Shown one piece after another: positions 6,201 through 36,358 of a stretch of DNA of 64,000 nt. Position 1 is the stretch's first letter, and every line of letters starts with the position of its first letter. The position numbers and the translations under genes are program-made. The notes under the pieces are model-generated. The model saw only the letters and a program-made list of their open reading frames with translations. It searched no databases and had not been told where the DNA came from. The stretch spans positions 15,069,839 through 15,133,838 of the forward strand of contig CM049316.1 of assembly GCA_026874595.1 (NCBI GenBank), in the 5' to 3' direction. The DNA is from Sipunculus nudus. Lineage: Eukaryota > Annelida > Sipuncula > Golfingiida > Sipunculidae.

Positions 6201-9200
6201 GATAAAAATATTCTTATGCTTGGCTTTTTCATCTTTATTTGTGTTTAAATCACAAGTTCCCTGCAGTAGCATATTTCATGTTTTCAAGTAGGGGAAACGG
6301 AGCTTTTTCTTCATTAATATCAGAAATTTAATAATTTATTACCATTACAATTAAACTAGAGAAAAATGTTGCAAAGTTGTTTTAATTTCCATTTTGGCCA
6401 GTAGGTGGCAGTATGGATGTCTGATGATATTTTCAGGGTGCCATGAATAATTATTGTGATGTTTTAAATGTTTTTCTTCATACTTGGATGTATTTATATA
6501 TTTGTAGGGTGGGATGTCGTTGATCATGTTGTGTTCAAGTGACATGTATAACCTCATCAATTATACGAGCTTCGTTGAATCATCATTCATAGCCGCATCT
6601 GTTGGTGGTCTCCTCTGGCTTCGGTGGAAAAGACCAGACATGCACCGACCCATCAAGGTATAATAACGTGGGACAGTTTTTGTGTGTAACATTGCAGCAG
6701 TTCCACAGCGATCAATTCTTGTGGTAAATATATAACAGAGTAAGAGGAAGTTTGCTCTTCAGAAGTTATATTCATTTTGCAGTAGTGTAATATAGTCTAG
6801 GAAATTTGTTTAACTTTTTGTCAATAATGCTCAAATGTCTTAACCCCAAAGACAAAGCCTAGTATTCAGTAATAATTGTATTATTTTTGCCAGACACAAT
6901 GTATATTTTCTTTGTTTGGATGTCTGTAAATAAATTTGTATGAACTAGACAAATTAGTTTTTCTAATTATTAACTTATTAATTCATAAGTAGCTTTTAAC
7001 TGCTGACACATAAGCAGTAATTCTTACAGCCATACTTGTGGACTGGTTTAAACTTTTTGGCTAGTACCACTTTTATAAAACCAGGTACATGTAAAAAGGA
7101 TTAAGCAGAAATTGGTAAGTTGGTTTATGTTTTTGGTTATTTATTTAGGCATAGGCTTCCCAAAGTGGTGTACAGCTGTGCATCTGACATTTCCCATATT
7201 TTGGATTCCATCATTTGTCACTTTTGATTTTTAAATCACTGAATTGATCATTTACAAATATATCTTTATTAATGACATTGCAAATAATTGGTCACTGGTC
7301 TTATGCTGTTGCACAGGCTGCTAATTATTTTCCTTATTTCAGGTGAATCTCTTTTTCCCGATCTTTTTCATGGTGATTTCGGCATTCTTGATCATATTTC
7401 CTCTCTGGCACAGTCCTACAGAGTGCCTGGCCGGAGTTGCCATGGTGATCACTGGTATCCCAGTCTACTGGCTGGGTATTTCCTGGAAGAAAAAGCCAAA
7501 AACATTCCGCAGATGGATACGTAAGTAATTTATTTGAAGTTATTATCTTAGTCAATGATATAGTGTGTTAATCAGCTTAGGGCTCCATATATTGAACAAT
7601 ACTGATGATTGAATGAAAAGGGACCCAGCCAACCTTGACATAAATCTAGAATTAGTTGCATTGTATAGCTTGAAGTATTTAGGTTTAAAGAGACTTAGAC
7701 AGTAGCATAGAGAGAGAGGAATGTTAAAAGCTGAGAGTGGAAAATTATATTTAGACATGAAAACATGAGCCATATGAACACAAGAAAATAAGAGAGAGGA
7801 GAAAATGTTGGACAAGAAAGAATAGATATTTAAGAACACTGCATGGAAGCTAAGTGAGGAAGGATTTTTGGACTAACGGGAGATTTCTGAACAACTCTTG
7901 GACATGAGTGTCACCAGACAATAGGTGACAATATGTACGGTGTTTTGTATCATAGTTTAACGAAGTCTGTTCTCTATTGATATTGACGTGAAGCGTCATC
8001 TTAAAGCGTTGACAGGTCTTGATTGTATATATATATATTGTGTATTCTTGTATGAAATCCCATCGGCTATCAGCTGATTTATCCGTGTCACGCATCGTGT
8101 GTTTGGTATGTGGGTCGCCATGGTGACGCTAACAGTCAAACTAGGTCACATATATCCTTATATGGGACACTTGAGAAATAAGCCAATCAGAGAACCGGAT
8201 CGCCGTATTGTGACGACGATTGTGACGTCAGAGTTCAGGGAGAGACGCTGGAAGCTGCCTTCAGTTGGGTCTTGAAGCTTGAGGTGGCAGCACGCACGCA
8301 CGAACATTGAAACGCCAGGAACGGCATAGAAGCAAGCTTCTACATGAGGCAAAGACCCAGCTCATGAGAACTCAGCCGTGCTGCCGACAGAGCTTCGTAT
8401 TGGCGATAAAGTGAGAGAGCGTTTGTCACCTGCCGGCCTAGTTCAGCTTGACCTAGATACATAACCGCCGTAAGCCGTGAAACCGTTGCTACAAGAGCAA
8501 GGTCAAGGACTCTAAGCTCCTCGTAAACAAAGAGCTCTGTTGCATTCATGTGAACGTAAACATACCCGGGTCGCAGACAAGCAAGATCAGTTGAAGATCA
8601 CTAAACTCAGAAAGACTAGATCTATATGGTACTAACCATACGCTAGATTCTACACAAAACAGTAACCAGAGATCTCTGAAGGAACTGGACTTTATGGTTT
8701 TTTTATACAAACCATGGACTCAGTAAAATATCCTGTAATTTTAATGTGAAGAGCTGTTGTATTGACACATCAACGCACACACTCACATTGGTGTCTCTGT
8801 AAGTATTGTCTTGAATTATATTTGTGAATTTAACCTGATGTCTCATAGTTTCTATTGATCTAGGTGTATGATTGTCTGGTATTTTAATACACGTCCTTAA
8901 AAGAACCTGGAAATGTCACCTGTAATGACCTGGATCTAATTTCTTGATTAATGAAATCAAGTGGCGAGCGTTAACCCATCCTATTGTTTTATAGGATATA
9001 TCCGTTGTAAAGTTTTCACGTTAAGTTAGGGGTGACATTGTATGGCGAGTGTGCCAGGATATAATTAGCCTTAAAAAAAACTGGCTAATTACAGTAAGTT
9101 TCAGAAATTTTGAACTGAGAAAACAGTACTGAAACCAGACATTCATATACTCAAACTAGAGTTGATCTGAATTAATAATTGGATATGACACCAAATTGAT

Positions 9201-12200
9201 GTTATAGTGTATACTTGCTCAATGAAATTACCCCACTGTTGGGAGTTAATATTTATTCAGTGAGAATATTACCTGAAGCACAACATTGTTTCAGGATTAG
9301 CATATACCTTGAAGATTTGGCTAGAACACATGCATGTTTTGTGAGTAATGCTAGTTCAGTGATACCTGAACATCATTACTGGTTTGATATAAACCCAGAT
9401 TAGAGTGAAAATTTTTGATGTTGTTAGATACGCCCTGGTATAATTTTTCCTACACTGGTTTGTGATTGGTCACGTGGTAGGGTCTCTTTACAGGTAAGTT
9501 TACCCCTCCCGATTGGCATGGTAATCATAGGTGCATGGTGTTTATTGATATCTTGATATCCATCCGTCCATCCGTCTGACCCTTCGTCCGACCTTCCGTC
9601 CGTCCATCCGTATAAGTAGATTTTGATGCGTAGAGCTACCGTAGTGTAATTGTACGGATACCGCCGGTTCGTTAGGTTGGCTTTAACAGTACGTATTTAC
9701 GGATTTTTAAGAGCGGATATTACTAGATACTGGAATCTTACTAGGTTAGAGCGTTACCATGGAGACGTTAGAGTCACTTGTTAGATGCGGGCAGGCCTTG
9801 GGACTTAAGGACCAGGCTTTACAAGATTATGTTGAGGCTAGACGGCGTGCGGATGAGGAACGTGAGGAAAGAGCTAGGCAGCGGGAATTAGAGCGCGAGC
9901 GAGAGGCTAGAGCCCACGAATTAGAGGTTCTAAGGTTAAAGTCTGACTCTGGGGTTAAAGAAGAGAGAAGTAGGGATGTATTCCCGAAAATCCAGCTTCC
10001 ACCTTTTGATGAGGCTCGCGATCAGCTAGATGCGTTTCTTGAGCGATTTGAACGATTAGCTGTATGTCAAGGCTATGATAGGGAGAACTGGGCGTTACAC
10101 CTGAGTCCGTTACTGCGGGGTAAGGCACTAGGGACTTACACACAGTTATCGGTTAGTGAGGCCATGGATTACGATAAGTTAAAGATAGCCTTGTTAAAGC
10201 GATACCAAATGACCGAAGAGGGTTATCGACACAAGTTTCGGACTTGTAGGCCTGAGCGAGGCGAAACGCCGAGTCAGTTTGCGGTGAGACTGAGTGGATA
10301 CCTAGACCATTGGATAGGGATGGCAGGGGTGGGAGGTGACTACAACGGGGTAGTTAACCTGTTGATGTGTGAGCAGTTCGTAAACTGCTGTAGTAGGGAT
10401 CTCTCTATGTTTTTGAAAGAGAGACGGTGTCGTGACTTTGATAGTATGGTAGACTTAGCCGAGAGTTATACGGAGGCTCACGGTGTACACAGCCTTACAG
10501 CAGGTCCTCGTTATGGCAATAATGTGCCGCGTCCAGCGCAACCGGTATCTCTGCCTAGAGAGAAGCGAGAGGTTGAGCGCAGTCCGGACGGTCAGACATT
10601 TAAGCCATCAGGAGGCATCAGATGTTATTTATGTAATGAACTGGGACATAAGGCGCGGGAATGTAAGACTAGTGCCCGGTCGAGGCCTAGGTCTTCCCCT
10701 CAAGTAGGGCGTGCTGCTGGCGATCAGCAGAGGTATAGGACTAATTTTAGCCCCCCGTATAACCCAAAACAGAAACCGGAGACTATGTCAATGGCAGTAG
10801 TCGAGGCGGAAACGGAGACAGTCGGTGCGGTGAAACCGGAAGTAGAGAGTCCGAGTCAGTCGTTAGGATTTGCTGCCCAGACAGAAGGCGGAATCTCGTT
10901 ACCTGTGTGTGAAGGGCTGGTGAATGGTAAGTCAGCGAGGGTGCTGCGGGATTCGGGATGTTCCTCGGCAGGAATACGTGAGTCGTACGTGGAGCTGAAT
11001 CAGTTCACCGGACACCAGGTCGAGTGTAGGTTGTTCGACGGGTCTGTAAGACAATTTCCTACGGCTAGGATTAATGTGGACTGTGCGTACTTTGTCGGTA
11101 CTATCGAGGCAATGGTGGTCGGGGATGCTGTATGTGATTTAGCGCTAGGTAACGTAGCGGGAGCACGTGATCCGTATGATCCGGACCCGACGTGGAAGTC
11201 TGAGCGGTCCTCAGGCATAGTGTGTGACGGTGTAGAGTCACAAAAGGAGGTGTCGTCCGCGGTGGAGACACGGAGCGCTGCACGAGAGAAACAGATACCG
11301 ATGCGTAGCTTGAATGTTGCAAGCCCAGTTGCCGATGTGAGTCCGGCCGAATTTTTGAAGGCGCAGGAGGAGGATGGGTCTTTAGCGCCGTATTGGAGGC
11401 TAGCTAGAGAGGCTAAAAATGATAGTCCATTTAGAATTGAGGACGGATATTTAGTTCGGGTTGTGAGTGATAAACGGGGAGATCAAGATGGATCTCGAGT
11501 GGTGGTACCTCAGACGTTACGGTACGACGTAATGAGGATGGGCCACGAAGCGGTTATGGCGGGCCATCAGGGCATAGACAAAACGCACGACCGCGTGAGA
11601 ACTCAGTTTTTCTGGAAAGGGATGTATAATGACATTGCTGAGTTTTGCAAGTCCTGTCCCATTTGCCAGAAAACCATACCGAAAGGCAAGGTGCCTGGAG
11701 CTACGTTAGGCCAGATGCCATTAATTGATGAGCCCTGGCGTAGAATTTCGATGGATCTGGTTGGGCCGATCGATCCAGCGTCTGAGAGAGGTCACAGGTA
11801 TATTCTGACCGTTATGGATTATGCCACTAGATATCCGGAGGCTGTTGCTTTAAAGAACATAGATACAGTCTCTGTGGCTGATGCGCTAGTTGATATTTAT
11901 GCGCGGTTAGGAGTGCCGTCAGAGGTGCTTACTGACATGGGAACACAATTTACGTCAGACCTCATGCGAGAAGTTAGCCGTGTTTTGTCTGTAAGACAGC
12001 TCACCACTACTCCTTACCATCCTATGTGCAACGGAATGGTGGAGAGATTCAATGGAACGTTAAAGTTAATGTTGAAACGGATGTGCGAGGAAAGACCGCA
12101 AGATTGGGATCGGTACCTCAGCGCCGTGCTTTTTGCGTACCGAGAAGCACCACATGAGAGCACAGGGTTCTCACCCTTTGAGTTGCTCTATGGTAGGATC

Positions 12201-15200
12201 GTTAGAGGACCGATGCGGATTCTAAGGGATCTGTGGACCAAGCGAGATACTAGCGTCGAGACTAAAACCACGTACCAATGCGTCCTGGACCTACAAGACA
12301 AACTAAGCGACACATGCGCGTTAGCTAGAGAGGCGTTGAACAAATCAGCGAACAGACACAGACTGTTATATGATAGAGGTAAATGCACGCGCAGGTTTGA
12401 GGCCGGAGACGAAGTTTTGTTGTTACTCCCGACGGAGCGGAACAAATTAATGGTACAGTGGAAAGGCCCCTATACTATTGTAAACAGGGTTGGGGACTTA
12501 GACTATCGGATTAAGATTGGCGATAAGGTTAAAACCTTCCACGTGAATATGCTGAAACGGTACCATGCTAGAAACAAGCCCCAGCATATTCTGGCAGCGG
12601 TAGCCAAGGGCGCACCTGATTCTATACATGATCCTGACGGTGTAGACGGGGAAACAGAGCACTGATAGACCTAAGACAAAGAAGGCTTTGCGAGCATTCC
12701 TAGGTCTTACAGGGTACTATCGAAAATTAGTGCCAAACTATGCGGAAATAGCGGTGCCCTTGACTGATCTAACGCGTAAAGGTCAAACTGACAAATTTTC
12801 AGAAATTTTGAACTGAGAAAACAGTACTGAAACCAGACATTCATATACTCAAACTAGAGTTGATCTGAATTAATAATTGGATATGACACCAAATTGATGT
12901 TATAGTGTATACTTGCTCAATGAAATTACCCCACTGTTGGGAGTTAATATTTATTCAGTGAGAATATTACCTGAAGCACAACATTGTTTCAGGATTAGCA
13001 TATACCTTGAAGATTTGGCTAGAACACATGCATGTTTTGTGAGTAATGCTAGTTCAGTGATACCTGAACATCATTACTGGTTTGATATAAACCCAGATTA
13101 GAGTGAAAATTTTTGATGTTGTTAGATACGCCCTGGTATAATTTTTCCTACACTGGTTTGTGATTGGTCACGTGGTAGGGTCTCTTTACAGGTAAGTTTA
13201 CCCCTCCCGATTGGCATGGTAATCATAGGTGCATGGTGTTTATTGATATCTTGATATCCATCCGTCCATCCGTCTGACCCTTCGTCCGACCTTCCGTCCG
13301 TCCATCCGTATAAGTAGATTTTGATGCGTAGAGCTACCTTAGTGTAATTGTACAGATACCGCCGGTTCGTTAGGTTGGCTTTAACAGTACGTATTTACGG
13401 ATTTTTAAGAGCGGATATTACTAGATACTGGAATCTTACTAGGTTAGAGCGTTACCATGGAGACGTTAGAGTCACTTGTTAGATGCGGGCAGGCCTTGGG
13501 ACTTAAGGACCAGGCTTTACAAGATTATGTTGAGGCTAGACGGCGTGCGGATGAGGAACGTGAGGAAAGAGCTAGGCAGCGGGAATAAGAGCGCGAGCGA
13601 GAGGCTAGAGCCCACGAATTAGAGGTTCTAAGGTTAAAGTCTGACTCTGGGGTTAAAGAAGAGAGAAGTAGGGATGTATTCCCGAAAATCCAGCTTCCAC
13701 CTTTTGATGAGGCTCACGATCAGCTAGATGCGTTTCTTGAGCGATTTGAACGATTAGCTGTATGTCAAGGCTATGATAGGGAGAACTGGGCGTTACACCT
13801 GAGTCCGTTACTGCGGGGTAAGGCACTAGGGACTTACACACAGTTATCGGTTAGTGAGGCCATGGATTACGATAAGTTAAAGATAGCCTTGTTAAAGCGA
13901 TACCAAATGACCGAAGAGGGTTATCGACACAAGTTTCGGACTTGTAGGCCTGAGCGAGGCGAAACGCCGAGTCAGTTTGCGGTGAGACTGAGTGGATACC
14001 TAGACCATTGGATAGGGATGGCAGGGGTCGGAGGTGACTACGACGGGGTAGTTAACCTGTTGATGTGTGAGCAGTTCGTAAACTGCTGTAGTAGGGATCT
14101 CTCTATGTTTTTGAAAGAGAGACGGTGTCGTGACTTTGATAGTATGGTAGACTTAGCCGAGAGTTATACGGAGGCTCACGGTGTACACAGCCTTACAGCA
14201 GGTCCTCGTTATGGCAATAATGTGCCGCGTCCAGCGCAACCGGTATCTCTGCCTAGAGAGAAGCGAGAGGTTGAGCGCAGTCCGGACGGTCAGACATTTA
14301 AGCCATCAGGAGGCATCAGATGTTATTTATGTAATGAACTGGGACATAAGGCGCGGGAATGTAAGACTAGTGCCCGGTCGAGGCCTAGGTCTTCCCCTCA
14401 AGTAGGGCGTGCTGCTGGCGATCAGCAGAGGTATAGGACTAATTTTAGCCCCCCGTATAACCCAAAACAGAAACCGGAGACTATGTCAATGGCAGTAGTC
14501 GAGGCGGAAACGGAGACAGTCGGTGCGGTGAAACCGGAAGTAGAGAGTCCGAGTCAGTCCTTAGGATTTGCTGCCCAGACAGAAGGCGGAATCTCGTTAC
14601 CTGTGTGTGAAGGGCTGGTGAATGGTAAGTCAGCGAGGGTGCTGCGGGATTCTGGATGTTCCTCGGCAGGAATACGTGAGTCGTACGTGGAGCTGAATCA
14701 GTTCACCGGACACCAGGTCGAGTGTAGGTTGTTCGACGGGTCTGTAAGACAATTTCCTACGGCTAGGATTAATGTGGACTGTGCGTACTTTGTCGGTACT
14801 ATCGAGGCAATGGTGGTCGGGGATGCTGTATGTGATTTAGCGCTAGGTAACGTAGCGGGAGCGCGTGATCCGTATGATCCGGACCCGACGTGGAAGTCTG
14901 AGCGGTCCTCAGGCATAGTGTGTGACGGTGTAGAGTCACAAAAGGAGGTGTCGTCCGCGGTGGAGACACGGAGCGCTGCACGAGAGAAACAGATACCGAC
15001 GCGTAGCTTGAATGTTGCAAGCCCAGTTGCCGATGTGAGTCCGGCCGAATTTTTGAAGGCGCAGGAGGAGGATGGGTCTTTAGCGCCGTATTGGAGGCTA
15101 GCTAGAGAGGCTAAAAATGATAGTCCATTTAGAATTGAGGACGGATATTTAGTTCGGGTTGTGAGTGATAAACGGGGAGATCAAGATGGATCTCGAGTGG

Positions 15201-18200
15201 TGGTACCTCAGACGTTACGGTACGACGTAATGAGGATGGGCCACGAAGCGGTTATGGCGGGCCATCAGGGCATAGACAAAACGCACGACCGCGTGAGAAC
15301 TCAGTTTTTCTGGAAAGGGATGTATAATGACATTGCTGAGTTTTGCAAGTCCTGTCCCATTTGCCAGAAAACCATACCGAAAGGCAAGGTGCCTGGAGCT
15401 ACGTTAGGCCAGATGCCATTAATTGATGAGCCCTGGCGTAGAATTTCGATGGATCTGGTTGGGCCGATCGATCCAGCGTCTGAGAGAGGTCACAGGTATA
15501 TTCTGACCGTTATGGATTATGCCACTAGATATCCGGAGGCTGTTGCTTTAAAGAACATAGATACAGTCTCTGTGGCTGATGCGCTAGTTGATATTTATGC
15601 GCGGTTAGGAGTGCCGTCAGAGGTGCTTACTGACATGGGAACACAATTTACGTCAGACCTCATGCGAGAAGTTAGCCGTGTTTTGTCTGTAAGACAGCTC
15701 ACCACTACTCCTTACCATTCTATGTGCAACGGAATGGTGGAGAGATTCAATGGAACGTTAAAGTTAATGTTGAAACGGATGTGCGAGGAAAGACCGCGAG
15801 ATTGGGATCGGTACCTCAGCGCCGTGCTTTTTGCGTACCGAGAAGCGCCACATGAGAGCACAGGGTTCTCACCCTTTGAGTTGCTCTATGGTAGGATCGT
15901 TAGAGGACCGATGCGGATTCTAAGGGATCTGTGGACCAAGCGAGATACTAGCGTCGAGACTAAAACCACGTACCAATGCGTCCTGGACCTACAAGACAAA
16001 CTAAGCGACACATGCGCGTTAGCTAGAGAGGCGTTGAACAAATCAGCGAACAGACACAGACTGTTATATGATAGAGGTAAATGCACGCGCAGGTTTGAGG
16101 CCGGAGACGAAGTTTTGTTGTTTCTCCCGACGGAGCGGAACAAATTAATGGTACAGTGGAAAGGCCCCTATACTATTGTAAACAGGGTTGGGGACTTAGA
16201 CTATCGGATTAAGATTGGCGATAAGGTTAAAACCTTCCACGTGAATATGCTGAAACGGTACCATGCTAGAAACAAGCCCCAGCATATTCTGGCAGCGGTA
16301 GCCAAGGGCGCACCTGATTCTATACATGATCCTGACGGTGTAGACGGGGAAACAGAGCACTGATAGACCTAAGACAAAGAAGGCTTTGCGAGCATTCCTA
16401 GGTCTTACAGGGTACTATCGAAAATTCGTGCCAAACTATGCGGAAATAGCGGTGCCCTTGACTGATCTAACGCGTAAAGGTCAACCTGACAAACTAGACT
16501 GGAAACCCGTACTCGAGAACGCGTACTGTTCTCTAAAGGCTAAACTGTCAGACCCTCCCATACTGAAGCTACCTGATTTCAGGAAACGATTTTATTTGAA
16601 ATGTGATGCATCTGATGTGGGTATTGGCTGTATCCTGATGCAAAGACACGAGGGGATCATGCACCCAGTAGCTTATGCCAGTCGTAAACTAATGCCCAGG
16701 GAGAGAAATTACTCCACCATCGAGAAAGAGTCATTAGCAATTGTATGGTCTGTACAGAAATTTGAGATGTACCTGGCTTGTAGACCGTTCACCATTCAGA
16801 CCGACCACAAACCATTAAAGTGTATTAGCAAATCAAAATGTGCTAATAAGAGAGTAATGAGATGGGCACTGGTTCTACAAGAGTTTAGATTTGATATTGA
16901 AGCAGTGTCAGGTAAACTAAACCATGGACCTGATTTTCTTAGCAGACTGCCTGAGTGTTAGGATGTAATGAGCTATAATGTTTAGCCAGTTAAGTCTAAA
17001 CATGTACAAGATTTTGCCCTGTGTCATAGACCGTGGGCATGTACTAATGACAACTTGTTACATGACCCTTATGTATTGCTATGTATTGCTACATGTAAAT
17101 ATGTTTAGCTGGACCCTGTAAGATAGAACGATACGATGTATCGAGAAAATACTGTGTATTTTCCTTAAAAGGAGGGGGTGATGTCACCAGACAATAGGTG
17201 ACAATATGTACGGTGTTTTGTATCATAGTTTAACGAAGTCTGTTCTCTATTGATATTGACGTGAAGCGTCATCTTAAAGCGTTGACAGGTCTTGATTGTA
17301 TATATATATATTGTGTATTCTTGTATGAAATCCCATCGGCTATCAGCTGATTTATCCGTGTCACGCATCGTGTGTTTGGTATGTGGGTCGCCATGGTGAC
17401 GCTAACAGTCAAACTAGGTCACATATATCCTTATATGGGACACTTGAGAAATAAGCCAATCAGAGAACCGGATCGCCGTATTGTGACGACGATTGTGACG
17501 TCAGAGTTCAGGGAGAGACGCTGGAAGCTGCCTTCAGTTGGGTCTTGAAGCTTGAGGTGGCAGCACGCACGCACGAACATTGAAACGCCAGGAACGGCAT
17601 AGAAGCAAGCTTCTACATGAGGCAAAGACCCAGCTCATGAGAACTCAGCCGTGCTGCCGACAGAGCTTCGTATTGGCGATAAAGTGAGAGAGCGTTTGTC
17701 ACCTGCCGGCCTAGTTCAGCTTGACCTAGATACATAACCGCCGTAAGCCGTGAAACCCTTGCTACAAGAGCAAGGTCAAGGACTCTAAGCTCCTCGTAAA
17801 CAAAGAGCTCTGTTGCATTCATGTGAACGTAAACATACCCGGGTCGCAGACAAGCAAGATCAGTTGAAGATCACTAAACTCAGAAAGACTAGATCTATAT
17901 GGTACTAACCATACGCTAGATTCTACACAAAACAGTAACCAGAGATCTCTGAAGGAACTGGACTTTATGGTTTTTTTATACAAACCATGGACTCAGTAAA
18001 ACATCCTGTAATTTTAATGTGAAGAGCTGTCGTATTGACACATCAACGCACACACTCACATTGGTGTCTCTGTAAGTATTGTCTTGAATTATATTTGTGA
18101 ATTTAACCTGATGTCTCATAGTTTCTATTGATCTAGGTGTATGATTGTCTGGTATTTTAATACACGTCCTTAAAAGAACCTGGAAATGTCACCTGTAATG

Positions 18201-18907
18201 ACCTGGATCTAATTTCTTGATTAATGAAATCAAGTGGCGAGCGTTAACCCATCCTATTGTTTTATAGGATATATCCGTTGTAAAGTTTTCACGTTAAGTT
18301 AGGGGTGACAATGAGATTAGAGATAATTTTGAATAGAGGGAGAGAGACTGGGACACATGAATAGTTTTTGAACACCTGAAACTTAAAGAAATAAAAGGGA
18401 CTGTGAAATTGTTCATACCAAGAAAATAAACATTCCCAATTGCTACCTGTCAAGAGAATAAATTTACACTCGTTTGTGAGTGAAACACAGCAGTTGGGCA
18501 CTGCCTTCCCATTGAGCCTGCAGAGCACTCACCCTGGGTGGGGTTCACTGTGAAAAATCTCTCCCACTCAGCTGAGATTTGAACTCACAATCTCCCAGCT
18601 TAGATTCCTGTGCGCCACTCCTGAGCCACAGAAGCCGGGTGTTGTTTGATCTTTAGCCATTGTTTCTGCCCTAAGTGACCAAGCAAACAGCATTTCATTT
18701 GAGTCAATAAATGTTTCTTTCTTCATCAGTGTAGCATATTCTTGAGGTAAGCTTCAGTAAAGTATCAAAAGGTTAGTTATTAATGTTCATGCTCAGGTAA
18801 TGTAATATACAAATACTTATATCACTGTCTCTTTTATTGTAGAATCCTTCACACAGACAACACAGAAGGCATTACTTTGTGCACCAGAAGATATTCATGA
18901 AGATTAA
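163..18907 (+). CDS. SLC7A8-like: SLC7 LAT2-like amino-acid transporter, C-terminal half (7 exons)
   Basis: This is the 3' part of an SLC7 heteromeric amino-acid transporter light chain, a plasma-membrane exchanger of neutral amino acids that pairs with a 4F2hc-type heavy chain. Seven exons (163-207, 1253-1376, 2086-2189, 5980-6076, 6508-6657, 7343-7520, 18843-18907) have GT/AG borders and matching phases, giving about 254 residues ending in TAA. Landmarks are [69 protein letters not shown] and GIPVYWLG. These cover roughly transmembrane segments 7-12 and the cytoplasmic tail. SDMYxLINY and the NAVAV context fit LAT2 (SLC7A8) better than LAT1. The heavy-chain-linking Cys and TM1 lie outside the window. 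Family assignment is firm; the subtype is inferred from remembered vertebrate sequences. Confidence 0.9.
208..1252 (+). other. Intron, no other feature seen
   Basis: AT-rich intron between the NYLNF and LPRAI exons of the SLC7 gene. No repeat, RNA gene or open frame of note was recognised. The 1377-2085 intron is likewise plain. Confidence 0.7.
1253..1376 (+). CDS. SLC7A8-like: SLC7A8-like exon ([10 protein letters not shown] segment)
   Basis: The acceptor CCTGTAG precedes AGACCTCCC, where the first A completes the Arg codon begun in the previous exon. The donor is GTAAGT at 1377. The translation has [17 protein letters not shown], a hydrophobic transmembrane stretch, then [14 protein letters not shown], matching the LAT1/LAT2 TM7 region and the following loop. 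The phase at the donor is 0. Open reading runs on past the donor by chance, so the exon end is set by the splice site. Confidence 0.92.
2086..2189 (+). CDS. SLC7A8-like: SLC7A8-like exon (LGVMAWIMP segment)
   Basis: The acceptor is TTCTGCAG. The exon reads [15 protein letters not shown], then a glycine-rich [14 protein letters not shown] and two bases of Arg. The donor is GTAAAT at 2190. The segment corresponds to TM8 and its substrate-proximal helix in LAT proteins. A TA-flanked inverted-repeat element begins at the seventh intron base, so the donor is bounded by transposon DNA at once. Confidence 0.92.
2197..3597. mobile_element. TA-flanked inverted-repeat DNA transposon, non-autonomous
   Basis: The 1401-bp element has perfect 25-bp terminal inverted repeats beginning CCGTAAAATCTCCACTTAAA and continuing ACCGC. 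TA lies just outside each end (2195-2196 and 3598-3599). Subterminal copies of GCGGTTTTAA or close variants lie near both ends (about 2219, 2278, 3481, 3553, 3573), as expected of transposase-binding sites. No long open frame is present, so it depends on a transposase elsewhere. The TA target suggests a Tc1/mariner-like superfamily, an inference only. It is inserted in the SLC7 intron starting at intron base 8. Confidence 0.8.
3600..4571. other. Intron stretch without recognised feature
   Basis: Intronic AT-rich DNA between the inverted-repeat element and the tandem-unit repeat. Short local inverted similarity (AATGCCTTTCC with its neighbours) is visible, but nothing can be named. Confidence 0.6.
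4572..5845. repeat. Tandem-unit repeat element with short inverted ends (family 1)
   Basis: The left end reads GCTCAGCTGACTG and the right end, read on the other strand, GCTCAGCCGACTG, a 12/13 inverted match. A CCGTC/CATC-rich head (about 4607-4660) is followed by repeated units with the landmarks CACAAATNRTAAC, CTAGAATCTT, GAGGTCCATGAAA, ATTAGGTCTCTGTTACCCAT and TGGTGGTGCCACCTG. The same units recur at 29240-30875 with a right end GTCAGCTGAGCGTCA like the one at 5831. A SINE occupies the right part. No coding capacity is evident; it is probably a non-autonomous element. Confidence 0.75.
5569..5799 (-). mobile_element. tRNA-derived SINE, family B
   Basis: Read on the minus strand it starts with a tRNA-like head containing box A-like CAGCTGAGTGGTAAAACG and box B-like GGTTCGATTCCC. 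It continues with a body holding GGTTTTCTCCGGGTCCTCCG and ends in a tail TTGTACAATCCATGTAAAAT. Further copies in the window lie at 29004-29140, 43365-43560, 45095-45325 and 48730-48961. The CGGAGAAAACCACC body is of a type common in mollusc genomes; a MetaSINE-like assignment is possible but untested. Confidence 0.8.
5980..6076 (+). CDS. SLC7A8-like: SLC7A8-like exon (FFVGARQG segment)
   Basis: The acceptor TTTTCACAG is followed by G, completing the AG|G Arg codon, then [19 protein letters not shown] and [13 protein letters not shown]. The donor is GTGAGT at 6077, phase 0. The RLFFxGAREGxLP and LLTPxPSLxF blocks are hallmarks of SLC7 light chains, spanning the cytoplasmic loop after TM8 and the start of TM9. 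Confidence 0.92.
6077..6507 (+). other. Intron with CTCF-like site only
   Basis: Plain AT-rich intron between the FFVGARQG and SDMYNLINY exons. The only item picked out is the CTCF-consensus match at 6398-6412. Confidence 0.6.
6398..6412 (+). promoter_or_regulatory. CTCF consensus match
   Basis: CCAGTAGGTGGCAGT agrees at all fifteen positions with the bilaterian CTCF core CCASYAGRKGGCRSY. It lies inside an intron 110 bp before the next exon. A single motif match is not proof of binding. Confidence 0.35.
6508..6657 (+). CDS. SLC7A8-like: SLC7A8-like exon (SDMYNLINY segment)
   Basis: The acceptor is TATTTGTAG and the donor GTATAA at 6658, with phase 0 at both ends. The exon encodes [19 protein letters not shown], a second hydrophobic stretch [15 protein letters not shown], and [10 protein letters not shown]. 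These are TM9-TM10 and the conserved cytoplasmic R-P-I-K motif of LAT transporters. The block SDMYxLINYxxF is close to vertebrate SLC7A8. Confidence 0.92.
6658..7342 (+). other. Intron, nothing seen
   Basis: AT-rich intron between the exons at 6508 and 7343; no repeat or RNA feature recognised. Confidence 0.65.
7343..7520 (+). CDS. SLC7A8-like: SLC7A8-like penultimate exon (TM11-TM12)
   Basis: The acceptor is TTATTTCAG and the donor GTAAGT at 7521. The exon encodes [41 protein letters not shown] and a basic tail start [12 protein letters not shown], ending in phase 1. It completes the twelve-segment core. If the donor were not used, reading would end two codons later (Arg-Lys-stop), leaving a nearly full transporter without the last 21 residues. 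The following intron carries the 10.4 kb LTR element. Confidence 0.93.
7909..9037 (+). repeat. 5' LTR of the Gmr1-like element
   Basis: 1129 bp, TGTCACC...GGTGACA, nearly identical to 17182-18310. It contains a perfect CRE palindrome TGACGTCA at 8223-8230 and a TA-repeat tract near 8029-8038. Promoter and polyadenylation positions cannot be fixed by eye. Confidence 0.95.
9043..9060 (+). promoter_or_regulatory. Primer-binding site candidate
   Basis: TGGCGAGTGTGCCAGGAT starts 5 bases after the 5' LTR. TGG pairs with the CCA end of a tRNA, and TGGCGA fits the end of a tRNA-Arg type acceptor. The match beyond six bases was not verified. Confidence 0.5.
9099..12796 (+). repeat. Internal duplicated block, copy 1 (3698 bp)
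   Basis: First of two head-to-tail copies with an exact offset of 3698 bp. It spans the leader, gag, integrase and the beginning of the RNase H-side reading region. Copies 1 and 2 differ at about 15 positions by eye, roughly 0.4%, close to the LTR divergence. The leader has a CCGTC/CATCC-rich stretch near 9559-9612. Confidence 0.9.
9759..12665 (+). CDS. Gag-protease-integrase open frame of Gmr1-like element, copy 1
   Basis: 968 residues. The N-terminus is a charged, coiled-coil-like stretch (about 25-65). Next comes a capsid region with SCAN-like helices (about 75-230; [17 protein letters not shown] is typical). A CCHC zinc knuckle C-Y-L-C...H...C lies at about 289-302 and a retropepsin-like R-D-S-G at about 397-400. 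The integrase has an HHCC finger (HQGIDKTH...CKSCPICQK) and a DDE core with Asp 666, Asp 726 and Glu 762, i.e. DD35E spacing. It ends with a GPY/F-type module around [11 protein letters not shown]. Capsid assembly and integration are the family roles. No RT palm motif is seen in this frame. Confidence 0.9.
12797..16494 (+). repeat. Internal duplicated block, copy 2 (3698 bp)
   Basis: Head-to-tail second copy of 9099-12796, joined directly to it. Downstream of this copy the sequence continues into the RNase H region, which follows copy 2 only. The very low difference between copies argues for duplication at or shortly before the insertion, or for an assembly effect. Confidence 0.9.
13862..16363 (+). 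CDS. Capsid-integrase open stretch, copy 2
   Basis: An 833-residue open stretch of the same protein as copy 1. It carries the SCAN-like capsid C-terminal part, CCHC knuckle, protease-like DSG, HHCC finger, integrase DDE core and GPY/F-type module. It is nearly identical in sequence to copy 1. It should be read as a fossil part of the LTR element, not a host gene. Confidence 0.85.
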   Translation: MDYDKLKIALLKRYQMTEEGYRHKFRTCRPERGETPSQFAVRLSGYLDHWIGMAGVGGDYDGVVNLLMCEQFVNCCSRDLSMFLKERRCRDFDSMVDLAESYTEAHGVHSLTAGPRYGNNVPRPAQPVSLPREKREVERSPDGQTFKPSGGIRCYLCNELGHKARECKTSARSRPRSSPQVGRAAGDQQRYRTNFSPPYNPKQKPETMSMAVVEAETETVGAVKPEVESPSQSLGFAAQTEGGISLPVCEGLVNGKSARVLRDSGCSSAGIRESYVELNQFTGHQVECRLFDGSVRQFPTARINVDCAYFVGTIEAMVVGDAVCDLALGNVAGARDPYDPDPTWKSERSSGIVCDGVESQKEVSSAVETRSAAREKQIPTRSLNVASPVADVSPAEFLKAQEEDGSLAPYWRLAREAKNDSPFRIEDGYLVRVVSDKRGDQDGSRVVVPQTLRYDVMRMGHEAVMAGHQGIDKTHDRVRTQFFWKGMYNDIAEFCKSCPICQKTIPKGKVPGATLGQMPLIDEPWRRISMDLVGPIDPASERGHRYILTVMDYATRYPEAVALKNIDTVSVADALVDIYARLGVPSEVLTDMGTQFTSDLMREVSRVLSVRQLTTTPYHSMCNGMVERFNGTLKLMLKRMCEERPRDWDRYLSAVLFAYREAPHESTGFSPFELLYGRIVRGPMRILRDLWTKRDTSVETKTTYQCVLDLQDKLSDTCALAREALNKSANRHRLLYDRGKCTRRFEAGDEVLLFLPTERNKLMVQWKGPYTIVNRVGDLDYRIKIGDKVKTFHVNMLKRYHARNKPQHILAAVAKGAPDSIHDPDGVDGETEH
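16386..16961 (+). CDS. RT connection and RNase H part of Gmr1-like element
   Basis: 191 residues starting at the RT thumb/connection ([19 protein letters not shown], residues 4-22), then an RNase H domain with [13 protein letters not shown], the block [20 protein letters not shown] and TDHKPL, ending before a DFLSRLPE terminus. These are hallmark Ty3/Gypsy RNase H motifs. The part lies downstream of the integrase, opposite to the usual Gypsy order and like Gmr1-type elements. Confidence 0.88.
   Translation: MRAFLGLTGYYRKFVPNYAEIAVPLTDLTRKGQPDKLDWKPVLENAYCSLKAKLSDPPILKLPDFRKRFYLKCDASDVGIGCILMQRHEGIMHPVAYASRKLMPRERNYSTIEKESLAIVWSVQKFEMYLACRPFTIQTDHKPLKCISKSKCANKRVMRWALVLQEFRFDIEAVSGKLNHGPDFLSRLPEC
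17167..17181 (+). promoter_or_regulatory. Polypurine tract of Gmr1-like element
   Basis: AAAAGGAGGGGGTGA lies directly before the 3' LTR start at 17182, the usual plus-strand priming site. Confidence 0.75.
17182..18310 (+). repeat. 3' LTR of the Gmr1-like element
   Basis: 1129 bp, same ends as the 5' LTR, CRE palindrome at 17496-17503. Followed by the target duplication ATGAG at 18311-18315 and then SLC7 intron. Confidence 0.95.
18468..18642 (-). mobile_element. tRNA-derived SINE, family A, fragment
   Basis: On the minus strand it reads GGCTTCTGTGGCTCAGGAG (box A), then GTGAGTTCAAATCTCAGCTG (box B), followed by the body CCCAGGGTGAGTGCTCTGCA and TGTTTCACTCACAAACGAG. It is clearly the same family as the fuller copy at 28597-28990, but diverged and shorter. 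It lies in the last SLC7 intron. Confidence 0.85.
18843..18907 (+). CDS. SLC7A8-like: SLC7A8-like last coding exon
   Basis: The acceptor TTTATTGTAG precedes AA, which completes the phase-1 codon (C|AA, Gln). The tail then reads [20 protein letters not shown] and stops at TAA 18905-18907. Other LAT proteins end in a similar short cytoplasmic tail (T..CQKL..V.PE). The assignment rests on phase match, the QKAL...PED resemblance and position. It is less certain than the other exons because the tail is poorly conserved. Confidence 0.72.
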
Positions 18908-29239: not shown

Positions 29240-30875
29240 ATTCTATATAGCAATCACTCTTTGTCCGTCGCCCGTCTGTCCGTCAGGCACAAATCGTAAC
29301 CACTGGACCTGGAATCTTCTAACTTGACATCCATAGAGGTCCATGAAAAATCTCCCTGGAAACCTGAAATTAGGTCTCTGTTATCCATATTCTTCGAGCC
29401 ATGGGGCTCACAAGTACCCCTCTAGAATAATGGAAAATTTGATACAAAAGCTCAAGTATCTGAACAACCAATGCATTGATACTCATGATTCTCATGAAGG
29501 ATATTGATCATGGAGTGTTTCATCAGATTCTGCAGACTGGTGGGGCCACCTGCATATTAAAAAAAAATTTCTTTACATTTTTTGTTCTCTATTTTTGAGT
29601 CCTTAAAAGATGCGGTCCTTTGGTAACAGGGCACAAATCGTAGTGACTGGACCTAGAATCTTATTTCTTAACGTGCAGGGAGGCCAATGAAATGTCTTCT
29701 TGGAAACTTAAAATTAGGTCTTTGGTACGCAAAACCTCTGAGCTATGAGGCTTGGAAGTACCCCCCCCCCCCCCCGAGGACAATTTGATACAAAAGCTCA
29801 AGTATTTAAACAACTAATGCATTGATCCTCATGATTAATTGTAGGGATATTGATCATGGAGTGTTTCATCAGTTTCTGCAGACTGGTGGCGCCACCTGTA
29901 TTTTTTAATTATTTTTTCTCTGTTTCTGAGACCTTTAAAGAAGTGGATGTCTGTTAACAAGGCACGAATCGTAACCATTAGACATGGAATCTTCTTACTA
30001 AATATCCAGGGAGGTCCATAAAAGATCTCTATGGAAACCTGAAATTAGGTCTCTGTTACCCATATCCTCTGAGCTATGGGACTCGAAAGTAACCCCCCCC
30101 CCCCCCAGAATAATGGAAAATTTGATACAAAAGCCTATGTATCTGAATAACTATTGCATTGATCCTCATGATTCTTTGCATGGATATTGATCATGGAGTG
30201 TTTCATTAATTTCTGCAGACTGGTGGCGCCACCTGCATTTGTTCGATATTTTGCGATTTTTTACTCCGTTTTTGAGACCTTTAAAGATGTGGTCTTCAGT
30301 TAACAGGGCACAAATCGTAACCATTAGACCTGGAATCTTTTAACTTGACATGCCAGGAGGCCCATAAAAAATCTTCGTGGAAACCTGAAATTAGGTCTCT
30401 GTTACCGATTTTCTCTGAGCTATAGGGCTCAGCAGTACCCCTCAGAATAACTAAAAATTTGACACAAGAGCTCCAGTATCTGAATACCTAAAGCATTGAT
30501 CATCATGATTCCTTGCATAGATATTGGTTATGGAATGTTTCATCTTTTTTTGTAGAATGGTGGCGCCACCTGCATTTTTTTTAATTTTACGCATTTTTAC
30601 ACAATTTTTATTATAACTTCTAAGATGTGGTTGTCTGTTAATAGGGCACAAATCGTAACCATTGGACCTAGAATCTTCTATCTCGGCATCCATGGAGGTC
30701 CATGAAAAATCTCCTTCGAATCCTGAAATTAGGTCTCTGTGACCCATATCCTCCGAGCTAAGCTTCAGTTGAATGGGGATACAACCTACAAATTTGTCAT
30801 TCAGATGACAAAATTCCTTTTGTGAATGTCTTCTTAGTCAGCTGAGCGTCAAGACCAATGGATCACTTGTTACAA
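29240..30875. repeat. Tandem-unit repeat family 1, five units
   Basis: Five units of about 330-350 bp, marked by CACAAATCGTAACC or a close variant near 29286, 29633, 29965, 30309 and 30648. Each also has GGAATCTT, ATTAGGTCTCTGTTACCC, AAAATTTGATACAAAAGCTC and, in most, TGGTGGCGCCACCTGCAT. The right end GTCAGCTGAGCGTCA near 30838 matches the element at 4572-5845. Poly-C runs near 29761 and 30091 are probably unit-derived. Confidence 0.8.
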
Positions 30876-31104: not shown

Positions 31105-31288
31105 TGTAGGATATTGCTAATTTCCAGACAGTTTTTACAGGACACTTAGTTTTATGTTACACCGGCACTAATTGTGTATGACGTCACCACTTTCTGTGGT
31201 TCTCTGTACCCGCCATGTTGGCCAGACAATGGTTGAATTAAACTTCGTTATGTTCCTGGAATTGTCATTACTTGTGTAAAACACGACA
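31105..31288 (+). repeat. 5' LTR, small-LTR Gypsy element
   Basis: 184 bp, with a perfect CRE palindrome TGACGTCA at 31179-31186. A primer-binding candidate TGGCGAACGTATGGGATA begins at 31291, two bases after the LTR. Confidence 0.93.
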
Positions 31289-31544
31289 ATTGGCGAACGT
31301 ATGGGATAGTAGATCGTTGCGGACCCAGAGGCACGAGCTGTCGAACTTTATGGACACTAGCTGTCAGTTCTAGGAGTTGCGCTCTATCACGAGATGACTC
31401 GCGCCACGAGGTCGGCCGTGAGCGATAAACGGTGCATATAAGTGGTGAGTGGTCAAAGAGACTTTATATCCAAGTTGATTTCGTGCTAACTGTACCAGTA
31501 GTCAGATTTTTTTTTTATTGAAGAAACGTAAAGTAACTACGAGA

Positions 31545-32345
31545 ATGGCTCTTTCTGAACTCTCGATGCCCATGTTTGTCCTTGAGCCAAAGGACACAGC
31601 TGGTCAACGGTGGCCACGCTGGCTTGCAAGATTCGATAATTACTTGTGTGCCGCTGGTATTGACAAGGCTCCACGGCAGCGTGCAATGTTATTGCACATG
31701 ATTGGTGACGAACTTTATGGGATTTTTGACACTTTAACTGAGGCTGCTCCTGACACATCAAACAGAAAAACTGTATATGATACAGCTAAGGCTGCACTGA
31801 ATGCTTATTTTGCACCTAAAAAAACCGTAGAATTCGAACTTTTCAACTTTCGTAATGCACAGCAGCAGGAACATGAAGACCTAGAAGGATTTTATGCCAG
31901 ATTAAAGCAATTGTCTGTGAACTGTGATTTTACAAATCCTGAAGCAGAGATTAAATCTCAAATCATACAGAAGTGCGCCATGCACAAATTTAGAGAAGAG
32001 GGTATTATTAAGCCCCAGTTGTCCCTACAGGATTTGTTAAAATTTGGCAGGACATTAGAGGCATCCAAGCGTCAGACAAAACTAATGGAACAGAAGATGA
32101 TGACAAGTTCATCTTGCCAGTCCCCATCAACTTCAGGTGTCCACAAGTTGACAAATAAAACAAGGCCAAGGCATAATGTGAAATCTGCTGGTGCACCATC
32201 TCTTAGTGTTAGGTCAACACCAAACAAGACATGTTATAACTGCGGTGGGAGTTGGCCCCACCCGAAAGGTCGTCGATGTCCCGCCTATGGCAAAAGCTGT
32301 CGAAGCTGTGGTTCTGCTAATCATTTTGCCACAGTGTGTCGAAAG
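31545..32345 (+). pseudogene. Gag part of small-LTR Gypsy element
   Basis: Begins MALSELSMPMFVLEPKD and carries a capsid-like WPRWLARFDNYL...GIDKAPRQRAML region, then two zinc knuckles: CYNCGGSWPHPKGRRCP and CRSCGSANHFATVC. This double-knuckle arrangement is typical of K02A2.6-like Gypsy polyproteins. Fossil part, not a host gene. Confidence 0.88.
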
Positions 32346-32449
32346 AAAAAGTCTAGTTCACGTGTCAGCAATACAGTGATAGTGCTTGACAATGACTCTG
32401 ATTCTGATAGTGACTTAGCTTTAAAGGTGATCACATCTACAAACAAGCC

Positions 32450-32760
32450 AGATGTTATATGGGTAACGCCCACAATTCAAGGTAAAGAGTTGAAAATGGA
32501 GCTTGATACCGGCTCATGCGTGTCTGTTATCAGCCAGTCAGATTTTGAAGCACAATTTCATGATGTTCCATTACACAGTACTACGGACACTCCGAAAACA
32601 TTTTCGGGACAGAAAATCCGACCTGTGGGTGTAGCTACAGTGACTGTAGAATATGGTGAACAAGTGAAGCAGCTAGAGCTGTTTGTAGTTGAGACAGATA
32701 GTCCTCCACTATTCGGTCGAGCTTGGCTGAAAGAAATACAAAATGATTGGCCGGAAATCA
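32450..32760 (+). pseudogene. Protease part of small-LTR Gypsy element
   Basis: A retropepsin-like region with the active-site motif MELDTGSCVSVIS and a flap/terminal PPLFGRAWL block, directly after gag. Confidence 0.85.
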
Positions 32761-32829
32761 AGACAGTACGCCAGATGTCTCTACCCAGACAACAGAAGTT
32801 AACTAGTTTACTCACCAGATTTGACCCCC

Positions 32830-33690
32830 TTTTTGATGGTGATGTTGGTCACATGATTGGGATTCGAGCGCACTTGGATGTAAACAGCTGTGAACAAAAG
32901 TTTTACAAACCTAGGCCTGTGCCCTATGCCATGCGGCAGAAGGTTGAGGATGAACTAGACAGGTTAGTCAGTTCAGGCATTTTGTCACCAGTCAGCCACA
33001 GTGATTGGGCTACACCAATCGTTCCTATAGTAAAACGTGATGGCTCCATCCGCATATGAGGAGACTTTAAAGTAACTGTAAATCCACACTTGAAAGTTGA
33101 TGTATATCCATTACCCAAAATTGAGGACATGTTTGCGAACTTAGCAAATGGGAAGTGTTTTACTGTTATTGATCTCGCACATGCATACCAACAGATGGAG
33201 GTTGATGAGGCTAGCAAAAAGTTCTTGGTTATCAACACGCATTAAGGGTTGTTTAGGTACAACAGACTCTGTTTCGGCATTGCATCAGCGCCAGCTGTGT
33301 ATCAGCGCGCAATTGAACAGGTGTTGCAGGGACTGCCGGGCGTGCAGTGCTTTTTGGATGACATTTTAGTTACGGGACAGTCTGATGAGGAGCACCTGCT
33401 AAATTTGGAACAAGTTTTGCAACGTTTGCAAGAATACGGATTGAAAATCAAGAAATCCAAATGTGAATTCTTCAAATCTAGTGTGAATTACTTGGGGCAC
33501 GTCATTGATGCAGAAGGGCTCCACACCTCTGAGGACAAAGTCAAAGCTATCTTGGAGGCTCCCAGTCCTCAAAATGTGCATCAACTGAGATCGCTGCTTG
33601 GTTTGATCAACTATTATTCCAGATTTCTGCCTATGTTGTCCAGTGTTCTGTACCCACTCAACCAGCTGCTGAACAAGTCAGCACAGTGGC
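32830..33690 (+). pseudogene. Reverse transcriptase part of small-LTR Gypsy element
   Basis: RT landmarks in order: RPVPYAMRQKVEDELDRL, GILSPVSHSDWATPIV, LCFGIASAPAVYQ and the palm motif FLDDILV, then the thumb LRSLLGLINYYSRFLP. Fossil, broken. Confidence 0.9.
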
Positions 33691-33769
33691 AATGGACATC
33701 TCAGTGTGATGAGGCACTCCAGAAAGCTAAGGAAATGTTGACATCCTCCAGGGTACTGACTCACTACGA

Positions 33770-34170
33770 TTTAAATTTGCCAGTAATTCTCGCTGCCGAT
33801 GCATCCGCCTATGGCATAGGTGCAGTCATTTCACACAAAATGAGCGATGGTGAAGAACGCCCGATAGCATTTGCGTCACGAACCTTGAGCAAAAGTGAAC
33901 AGAACTATTCGCAAGTCGAAAAAGAGGCACTGAGTCTGATTTTCGGGGTGAAGAAGTTTCATCAATATCTAGTTGGACGTCAGTTTACGTTGGTCACAGA
34001 TCACCGCCCACTCACAACTATCTTCGGCTCAAAGAATGCGGTACCTGCATTAACTGCTGCCAGATTACAACGCTGGGCATTGTTTCTTGCAGGTCATCAA
34101 TACAAGATCATTTACAAGTCTTCCTCTCAGCATTGTCATGCAGATGGACTGAGTAGGTTACCGCTAAATA
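33770..34170 (+). pseudogene. RNase H part of small-LTR Gypsy element
   Basis: Motifs AADASAYGIGAVISH, RPIAFASRTLSKSEQNYSQ, VEKEALSLIFGVKKFHQYL, TDHRPLTTIF and HCHADGLSRLP are those of the Ty3/Gypsy RNase H domain. Confidence 0.9.
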
Positions 34171-34389
34171 TTCAGCCTGAGGAAGATGACCGTCTTGATG
34201 TTTATCTAGTGTCGCAGTTTGAGAACTGTTTACCCGTCACAAGTGATATGATCAGAGCTGAAACGCGCCGTGATCCAACACTCTCCAAGGTCATGGACTA
34301 TACGCAGAGAGGATGGCCTCCCAAGGATAGTGTTGATGAAACGTTGTTGCCGTATTACTCCAAGCAACATGAACTGTCCGTCAGTCAGG

Positions 34390-35340: not shown

Positions 35341-36154
35341 CACAGAAGAGTGTAGTGATAATTCTGCAGAGCATGATTTTACTCCTGTGCCGGAACCAGG
35401 AGGTGTTTGTGTTCCTAGTTTTGAGAATCCTGATAGTTGTGATAATACATGTTGTTTGAAAGATAAATCGGTTGTACAAGTATCTCAGGGAGGTACAGTG
35501 AACGACACCATAGATGCTGAGGAATCTGGTAGTTCAAGTGAAATTGTGAGTGATACCACTGCTAGTGTTGATATCAGGGTTACGCCAGAGCGTTATTCTT
35601 AGAGAAAACGTAAACCGAGAAAGATTATGGACTTATAACTCAGAGACTTTATTTGTACGTACTGGATACGTGGTTTCAGAGAGACAGTTCTACTATAAGG
35701 TTCTTTTGATTTTTATATTTAATGATAACAAGACCATAACACCTCAGTTCTGTTGTTTCACATGCCGGTGTTAGTAATCACATGGTATCAAGTTTAAATG
35801 TTTACAGTGGATATGTTTAACAGTTGGTAAGGTTAAGCATTTACTGTGGCATATGTATATTGTCAAAATATGATGCACAAAATCTAAATTGTTTGTAGAC
35901 TTTTAAAATCTACCCTGTAATTGTTTGAACCTAAGTTTTATTTGAGAGTACTGAGTTATTTAACAACTGCGATACCTAGTTTAATATTTGTAACATAAGG
36001 TATTTTTCACTGTAATTGATTAACTCTTTCATGGCCACAGTTTAACTCTTTCAGTACCAAGTAAATATATATGTCTTTTGATATCATTTATTATCTTGTC
36101 AGTAAACCACTCACACTCTCCAGATTTTATTACACAACCTATGCTAACTAAAGA

Positions 36155-36353: not shown

Positions 36354-36358
36354 CTTTT

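What the first reader, a model, noticed from the sequence alone, without database searches (positions are those of the whole stretch)
7909..18310. Young Gmr1-like Gypsy element with a SCAN-like gag in a probable mollusc
Seen: integrase lies upstream of the RNase H part, with Gypsy-type motifs throughout, and the gag has SCAN-like helices. Known: Gmr1-like elements show this copia-like pol order and their gag is the proposed source of the vertebrate SCAN domain. A very young invertebrate member would help to place that domain's history.
Basis: partly seen in the sequence, partly recalled or inferred. Interest (0 to 1): 0.72.

Follow-up and report, generated by a model that had tools for sequence, protein, structure and literature searches.

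The report
Broken jumping gene with SCAN capsid
This is a recently inserted retrotransposon whose capsid protein is related to the vertebrate SCAN domain and whose integrase comes before its RNase H; it has lost its reverse transcriptase, and it belongs to a large family of such copies that seem to depend on, and recombine with, complete relatives.

Summary
The element spans 7909-18310, with 1129-bp LTRs differing at 3 positions and a 5-bp target duplication. Its order is gag-PR-INT ... RNase H, and its gag passes Pfam's SCAN cut-off. A profile of this genome's own gags has four SCAN structures as its top PDB hits (the fourth not significant alone).

Three families here have integrase before RT-RH and a SCAN-scoring gag. 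They form one side of a branch against seven standard-order Ty3/Gypsy elements (RT-RH 99/98, integrase 89/90). This makes the element Gmr1-like; no named Gmr1 sequence was at hand to test clustering. The host phylum was not established.

The RT loss is shared: the scar of an 887-bp deletion between ACAGAGC repeats marks 194 places, against 143 with the undeleted left junction. RT-less copies have similarly young LTRs, share LTR and gag lineages with full copies, and show linkage to the deletion only near it. The best reading is an RT-less, probably trans-mobilised subfamily that recombines with full copies: a new variant of a known kind. Movement in trans is inferred.

The parts
7904..7908 (.). 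5-bp target-site duplication, left (ATGAG)
7909..9037 (+). 5' LTR, 1129 bp, TGTCACC...GGTGACA
   Evidence: 3 mismatches to the 3' LTR
9043..9060 (+). candidate primer-binding site (TGGCGAGTGTGCCAGGAT), unverified
   Evidence: sequence; a search for a tRNA 3' end fitting it found 0
9096..12795 (+). first copy of the internal 3.7-kb duplication (leader-gag-PR-INT-RT thumb start)
   Evidence: 99.54% to 12794-16493
9759..12665 (+). Gag-PR-INT open frame, copy 1, 968 aa, open throughout
10218..10481 (+). SCAN-like domain (capsid C-terminal part), copy 1
   Evidence: Pfam PF02023, residues 154-241, 28.5 bits
10620..10667 (+). CCHC zinc knuckle
   Evidence: PF00098, residues 288-303
10947..10967 (+). 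aspartic protease motif DSG (RDSGCSS)
   Evidence: sequence motif by eye; no Pfam protease hit
11505..11675 (+). integrase zinc-binding domain
   Evidence: PF17921, 76.1 bits
11733..12023 (+). integrase core
   Evidence: PF00665, 48.1 bits
12429..12566 (+). integrase C-terminal SH3 / GPY-like part
   Evidence: PF24626, PF22938
12654..12660 (+). RT deletion scar ACAGAGC, copy 1
   Evidence: comparison with full copies
12794..16493 (+). second copy of the internal duplication; junction found once in the genome
13457..16363 (+). Gag-PR-INT copy 2, interrupted by TAA at 13586-13588
16352..16358 (+). RT deletion scar ACAGAGC, copy 2
16350..16961 (+). RT thumb remnant plus RNase H frame, +1 relative to Gag-PR-INT; first Met at residue 97
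17167..17178 (+). polypurine tract AAAAGGAGGGGG
   Evidence: sequence
17182..18310 (+). 3' LTR
18311..18315 (.). 5-bp target-site duplication, right (ATGAG)

Best explanation
The window holds one recent insertion of an RT-less member of an integrase-first (Gmr1-like) Ty3/Gypsy family with a SCAN-related capsid. The full form in the same genome is gag(SCAN)-PR-INT-RT-RH in one ~1480-aa frame (shown). An 887-bp deletion between two ACAGAGC repeats removed the RT core, left Gag-PR-INT as its own ~970-990-aa frame and put RNase H out of frame (shown). RNAs of this form are probably packaged with full-length RNAs, copied by their RT, integrated, and recombined with them by template switching (inferred from young LTRs, target duplications, shared LTR and gag lineages, and linkage to the deletion confined to its neighbourhood). 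The 3.7-kb internal duplication in this copy probably arose by one further template jump during its own cDNA synthesis (inferred).
For: INT then RNase H, SCAN hit. Nine of nine full copies fetched have INT-RT-RH order; eight of the nine read open through RT. The deletion is identical in 11 of 11 RT-less loci fetched before the junction was known, and in both window copies. 194 deleted against 143 undeleted junctions at up to two mismatches, reversed-pattern controls 0. LTR pair divergence 0.09-0.96% in 11 RT-less (window included) and 0-0.62% in 9 full copies. Exact 5-bp duplications in 6 of 10 fetched RT-less plus the window, and in 6 of 8 full copies with readable ends (by eye). RT-less and full labels interleave in six segment trees (5-9 changes). 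A site 299 bp upstream of the deletion carries G in 24 of 33 RT-less and 2 of 29 full sequences (p 8.9e-8); in the 40 later loci alone it is 13 of 20 against 1 of 20 (p 1.4e-4). Sites 48 and 31 bp upstream have p 0.018 and 0.0041; the five tested sites more than 350 bp away have p 0.12 or more. Integrase-first families form one group. The gag profile finds SCAN structures.
Against: No RNA or particle data, so movement in trans is not shown. Recurrent deletion at the same repeats would also spread RT-less copies over LTR lineages. Within 350 bp of the deletion some tested sites (294, 221, 24, 21 bp) show no association (p 0.18-0.62). dN/dS of the integrase C-terminal part in RT-less copies is 0.60 (0.36-1.02), not clearly below 1; full copies 0.35 (0.21-0.60). 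The integrase tree supports the integrase-first group only at 89/90. The candidate primer site matched no tRNA.
Confidence: 0.72

Rival explanations
1. RT-less copies form anew, again and again, by the same repeat-mediated deletion in different full-length lineages; there is no propagating RT-less subfamily.
For: RT-less and full copies share LTR lineages and gag length classes; 7-bp repeats flank the deletion; nine of twelve tested integrase sites show no association with the deletion.
Against: Association with a nearby integrase variant: 24 of 33 against 2 of 29, and 13 of 20 against 1 of 20 in the later loci alone. RT-less junctions outnumber full ones, 194 to 143. The 11 junctions fetched before the junction was known are identical, and no other RT deletion was met among the 20 loci.
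Confidence: 0.2
2. RT-less copies multiply as DNA (tandem arrays, segmental duplication, gene conversion), not by retrotransposition.
For: Regular tandem arrays exist, e.g. C16:33.37 Mb at 5601-bp spacing and C7:13.62-13.67 Mb; one fetched locus shows internal-LTR-internal order (L025).
Against: Exact target duplications with different flanks in 6 of 10 fetched RT-less copies plus the window; the first 100 places listed are spread over contigs C1 to C8.
Confidence: 0.08
3. It is an ordinary standard-order Gypsy element whose integrase was moved upstream by rearrangement of this one copy.
For: This copy is rearranged (internal duplication, RT loss).
Against: Nine of nine full copies fetched have INT before RT-RH, and so do two other families; integrase-first rows form one side of a branch.
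Confidence: 0.01

Closest known systems
Gmr1-like (integrase-first) Ty3/Gypsy clade
   Same: INT upstream of RT-RH, Gypsy-type pol, SCAN-related capsid. Gmr1 order described in PMC6238403, PMC8220671, PMC3587641 (passages read); SCAN found in over half of frog Gmr elements in PMC4131045 (passages read).
Vertebrate SCAN domain
   Same: The capsid C-terminal part is significantly similar to Pfam SCAN, and a profile of seven gag stretches reaches solved chains of ZNF24, PEG3 and ZNF174 (that these chains are SCAN domains is recalled).
   Different: Here it is a retroelement capsid part followed by a zinc knuckle, protease and integrase; no zinc-finger gene with SCAN was looked for.
Mouse IAP 1-delta-1 subfamily
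   Different: IAP's deletion fuses Gag and Pol; here the RT core is removed and Gag-PR-INT ends early.
Wheat RLG_Sabrina_SA, Arabidopsis Athila, barley BARE2
   Same: Defective partners keeping some open frames; Athila also recombines between lineages (PMC9744471, PMC2410132, PMC3735527, passages read).
   Different: Those lack RT and INT (Sabrina), pol (most Athila) or Gag (BARE2); none of the passages seen describes loss of RT with INT kept.

Membership tests
Ty3/Gypsy LTR retrotransposon | LTRs, target duplication, Gypsy-type integrase and RNase H | tested here: met
   RT-RH and INT of the full copy L011 are closest to Ty3 in the PDB, E 2.6e-71 and 7.4e-26
Gmr1-like clade | integrase upstream of RT-RH | tested here: met
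   order seen in 9 of 9 full copies fetched and in families B and C; the window copy has INT before RNase H but no RT core
Gmr1-like clade | integrase-first elements group together apart from standard-order ones | tested here: met
   RT-RH 3 against 7 rows, 99/98; INT 5 against 7 rows, 89/90, not starred
Gmr1-like clade | clusters with Gmr1 from cod and named relatives | not testable with these tools
SCAN-related capsid | significant match to SCAN profile or structures | tested here: met
   Pfam 28.5-32.2 bits in family A, 42.6 in B, 52.3 in the C gag L003; PDB profile search, top four hits SCAN chains, E 2.7e-4, 0.0026, 0.012, 0.2; against: the window gag alone finds none; control: one standard-order gag in the window has no SCAN match
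SCAN-related capsid | SCAN fold | tested here: inconclusive
   single-sequence model pLDDT 44.6
Non-autonomous LTR retrotransposon | lacks an essential function, many young copies | tested here: met
   RT core absent, 194 deleted junctions; LTR pairs at most 0.96% apart in the 11 copies measured
Non-autonomous LTR retrotransposon | mobilised in trans by full copies | not testable with these tools
   only indirect: recombination pattern

The most novel reading that the evidence does not exclude
A two-component retrotransposon with division of labour. The full form makes Gag and Pol in one frame, and the more numerous RT-less form supplies extra Gag-PR-INT, doing the job that frameshifting does elsewhere. 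The two forms share one recombining pool of LTRs and capsids.
Probability: 0.15. Interest if true: 0.7.

Novelty: new variant of a known kind. Interest (0 to 1): 0.42.

Why it matters
Three integrase-first families in one genome, all with SCAN-scoring capsids and standing apart from the standard-order elements sampled, give material to date the SCAN lineage once the host is named. If the host is an invertebrate, the SCAN-type capsid is older than the vertebrate genes that carry it. The RT-less subfamily is an unusual case of a defective element that keeps capsid, protease and integrase, outnumbers its full partner by junction count and seems to exchange segments with it. That lets trans-mobilisation be studied by population genetics of copies in one genome.

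Tried and rejected
Structure: a single-sequence fold of the capsid was too poor to search with. Host: the COX1 search rang in nine contigs and a fragment on C5; the one contig read, C123, looks bacterial by its genes as I recognise them, so no mitochondrial contig was identified; mollusc haemocyanin search silent in genome and controls; CpG ratio not decisive. Primer tRNA pattern: 0 hits. Viral-contig scans with INT and with RT-RH: no relatives. Origin of the internal duplication from two different RNAs: of 17 differences, 15 could be compared; at 13 the copy-specific state was absent from the 21 other sequences and at 2 it was rare, so it is not shown. Selection on RNase H in RT-less copies: too few changes. 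In one search the protease ratio for RT-less copies is inflated by one frameshifted row (L025 second copy) and is not used. In the RT-RH tree the family C row opens with some residues that I judge out of frame, and the row for the window's standard element is partial; in the integrase tree the family C rows, L078 and that element are partial. Goodwin and Poulter's original Gmr1 paper: recalled, not read. Emerson and Thomas 2011: not held; known only through citing papers.

Full report
What is there. The element covers 7909-18310 (10,402 bp). Its LTRs (7909-9037, 17182-18310) are 1129 bp and differ at 3 sites, and ATGAG flanks both ends. A polypurine tract lies before the 3' LTR. A candidate primer site follows the 5' LTR, but no tRNA 3' end fitting it was found. 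The open 968-aa frame 9759-12665 holds a SCAN-like capsid part (28.5 bits, Pfam cut-off 27), a zinc knuckle, a DSG protease motif (read by eye), the integrase zinc domain and core, and a C-terminal SH3-type part. RNase H with a remnant of the RT thumb lies at 16350-16961. The RT fingers and palm are missing. The stretch 9096-12795 is repeated as 12794-16493 with 17 mismatches; the second gag-PR-INT has a premature TAA at 13586-13588. The duplication junction, searched with up to three mismatches, occurs once in the genome.

What it derives from. The window lies in a 1.43-Gb genome of 153 contigs. Twenty loci of the same family were fetched. In nine the RNase H hit starts about 985 bp after the end of the INT hit, and in eleven 98 bp after it. 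In eight of the nine the stretch from INT to RNase H reads open with a YVDD motif; in L027 it is frameshifted. In the junction read in each of the eleven short loci, and in both window copies, the scar is identical: an 887-bp deletion between two ACAGAGC repeats. These loci were picked from LTR, INT, RNase H and gag hits, before the junction was known. By junction pattern with up to two mismatches there are 194 deleted places (the window, by its sequence, supplies two) and 143 undeleted left junctions, with reversed-pattern controls at 0. Of 111 integrase hits scored, 14 lie in frames of at least 1466 aa and 43 in frames of exactly 971, 978, 985 or 989 aa. The deletion shifts the frame: Gag-PR-INT stops at once, and RNase H continues in the +1 frame with its first Met at residue 97, after the motif CDAS, which I take for the first catalytic Asp (motif by eye). 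Whether RNase H is made from such copies is unknown.

Are the RT-less copies moving. LTR pairs differ by 0.09-0.96% in 11 RT-less copies (window included) and by 0-0.62% in 9 full copies; L025 had no second whole LTR in its stretch and was not counted. Exact 5-bp target duplications were read in 6 of 10 fetched RT-less copies plus the window and in 6 of 8 full copies. Of the rest, two RT-less (L018, L024) and two full copies (L012, L028) match at 4 of 5 bases, L022 and L023 show none as placed, and L009 was cut at its right end and not counted (by eye). RT-less and full copies do not form separate groups: the fewest label changes on trees of LTR, leader, gag, PR, INT and RNase H were 9, 7, 6, 8, 5 and 6 (many branches in the coding trees are weak). 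Each of the four main gag length classes occurs in both forms. In 21 elements, mean linkage to the deletion exceeded shuffled labels only for INT (P 0.017) and nearly for RNase H (P 0.060); leader, gag, PR, the 3' tail and the LTR were at chance. Forty more short loci, 20 of each kind and chosen by junction, were added to these, giving 33 RT-less sequences (both window copies counted) and 29 full ones. At 299 bp upstream of the deletion G is in 24 of 33 and 2 of 29 (p 8.9e-8); in the forty later loci alone it is in 13 of 20 and 1 of 20 (p 1.4e-4). Sites at 48 and 31 bp gave p 0.018 and 0.0041. The other nine of the twelve tested sites, including those at 294, 221, 24 and 21 bp, gave p 0.12 or more. 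I read this as one founding deletion, or few, on one haplotype, later reshuffled with full copies. P values are not corrected for twelve sites or for relatedness. Selection is weakly informative: dN/dS over 244 integrase codons is 0.35 (0.21-0.60) in 29 full and 0.60 (0.36-1.02) in 32 RT-less sequences.

SCAN and order in the wider genome. The Pfam SCAN search scored 150 of 2198 candidates, all 150 over the cut-off, best 57.1 bits; I did not check how many lie in retroelements. The eight best (L001-L008) belong to one family (C) whose gag is about 28-39% identical to the window's over the matched stretches. Three stretches of it show INT before RT before RNase H (L034, L035, L036). A third family (B: L082, L083) has gag, PR and INT upstream of RT-RH (INT 60% identical to the window's), SCAN 42.6 bits. 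Five of six loci picked from the RNase H search had standard RT-RH-INT order (L077-L081), as has a second Gypsy element in the window (31105-36356) whose gag shows no SCAN match. On RT-RH the three integrase-first rows are one side of a branch against seven standard rows including Ty3 (99/98). On integrase five rows stand against seven with 89/90, not starred. Ty3 is a long branch, several rows are partial and the trees are small. A profile from seven gag stretches of this genome (three families) searched against 177,635 PDB sequences gave, as its four best hits, chains named ZNF24 (E 2.7e-4), PEG3 (0.0026), ZNF174 (0.012) and zinc finger protein 42 (0.2, not significant alone); that these are SCAN domains is recalled. 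The next hit is an enolase at 0.34. All seven members match Pfam SCAN at the E 1 limit asked, best 5.1e-15. The window gag alone found no SCAN structure.

Against the literature. Searches for Gmr1 with SCAN domain, mollusc or Gypsy, for SCAN domain with Gypsy and for SCAN in invertebrates were made in the held open library only. Gmr1-like elements are reported from crustaceans as the first in protostomes (PMC3587641, passages), from an annelid (PMC8220671, passages) and from several phyla (PMC8556966, passages). A mollusc survey lists its Gypsy clades without Gmr1 (PMC6238403, section 6 and passages). A SCAN domain is reported in over half of frog Gmr elements (PMC4131045, passages). I saw no report of SCAN in a protostome Gmr1 gag in these listings and passages, and the library misses most subscription papers. 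Defective partners that keep open frames are known in plants and mouse (PMC9744471, PMC2410132, PMC3735527, PMC5738225, PMC7411935, passages; searches). Loss of RT with Gag, PR and INT kept, in a Gmr1-like element, is the variant here.

Verdict. This is a real, well-delimited, recent insertion of an RT-less, internally duplicated member of an integrase-first family with a SCAN-related capsid. Family and order are shown. The name Gmr1-like rests on order, capsid and grouping inside this genome. Movement in trans and recombination by template switching are inferred.

Noticed in passing
window 31105-36356 (+): A second, standard-order Gypsy element: 187-bp terminal repeats 99% alike, gag-PR, RT-RH, then INT; served as an order and SCAN control.
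   Followed up: partly
G000 C16:33.37 Mb, C11:48.51 Mb, C14:21.39-21.43 Mb, C7:13.62-13.67 Mb: Evenly spaced arrays of the same family, both full and RT-less (spacings about 5.6, 6.1, 9.9 and 10.4 kb). How they form and whether any is an assembly effect is open.
   Followed up: no
G000 contigs C60, C61, C62, C66, C72, C74, C75, C89, C123: Contigs with long COX1-like hits; C123 was read in part and carries bacterial-looking genes. They may be symbionts or contamination; the others were not read.
   Followed up: partly
family A gag N-terminal part (window about 9759-9980): The charged stretch near the start of gag seems to differ in length between copies (gag hit spans 787, 808, 829, 841 bp; one 691); each of the four main classes occurs in both full and RT-less forms.
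   Followed up: partly
L022: An LTR whose first 60-odd bases are repeated three times at both ends of the element.
   Followed up: no
window 29286-30760: Tandem array of a 346-bp unit, 4.3 copies.
   Followed up: no
window 7909-18310 against flanks: CpG observed/expected is 0.94 in the element and 0.37-0.61 in three other stretches of the window, in line with a young insertion in a CpG-depleted genome.
   Followed up: no
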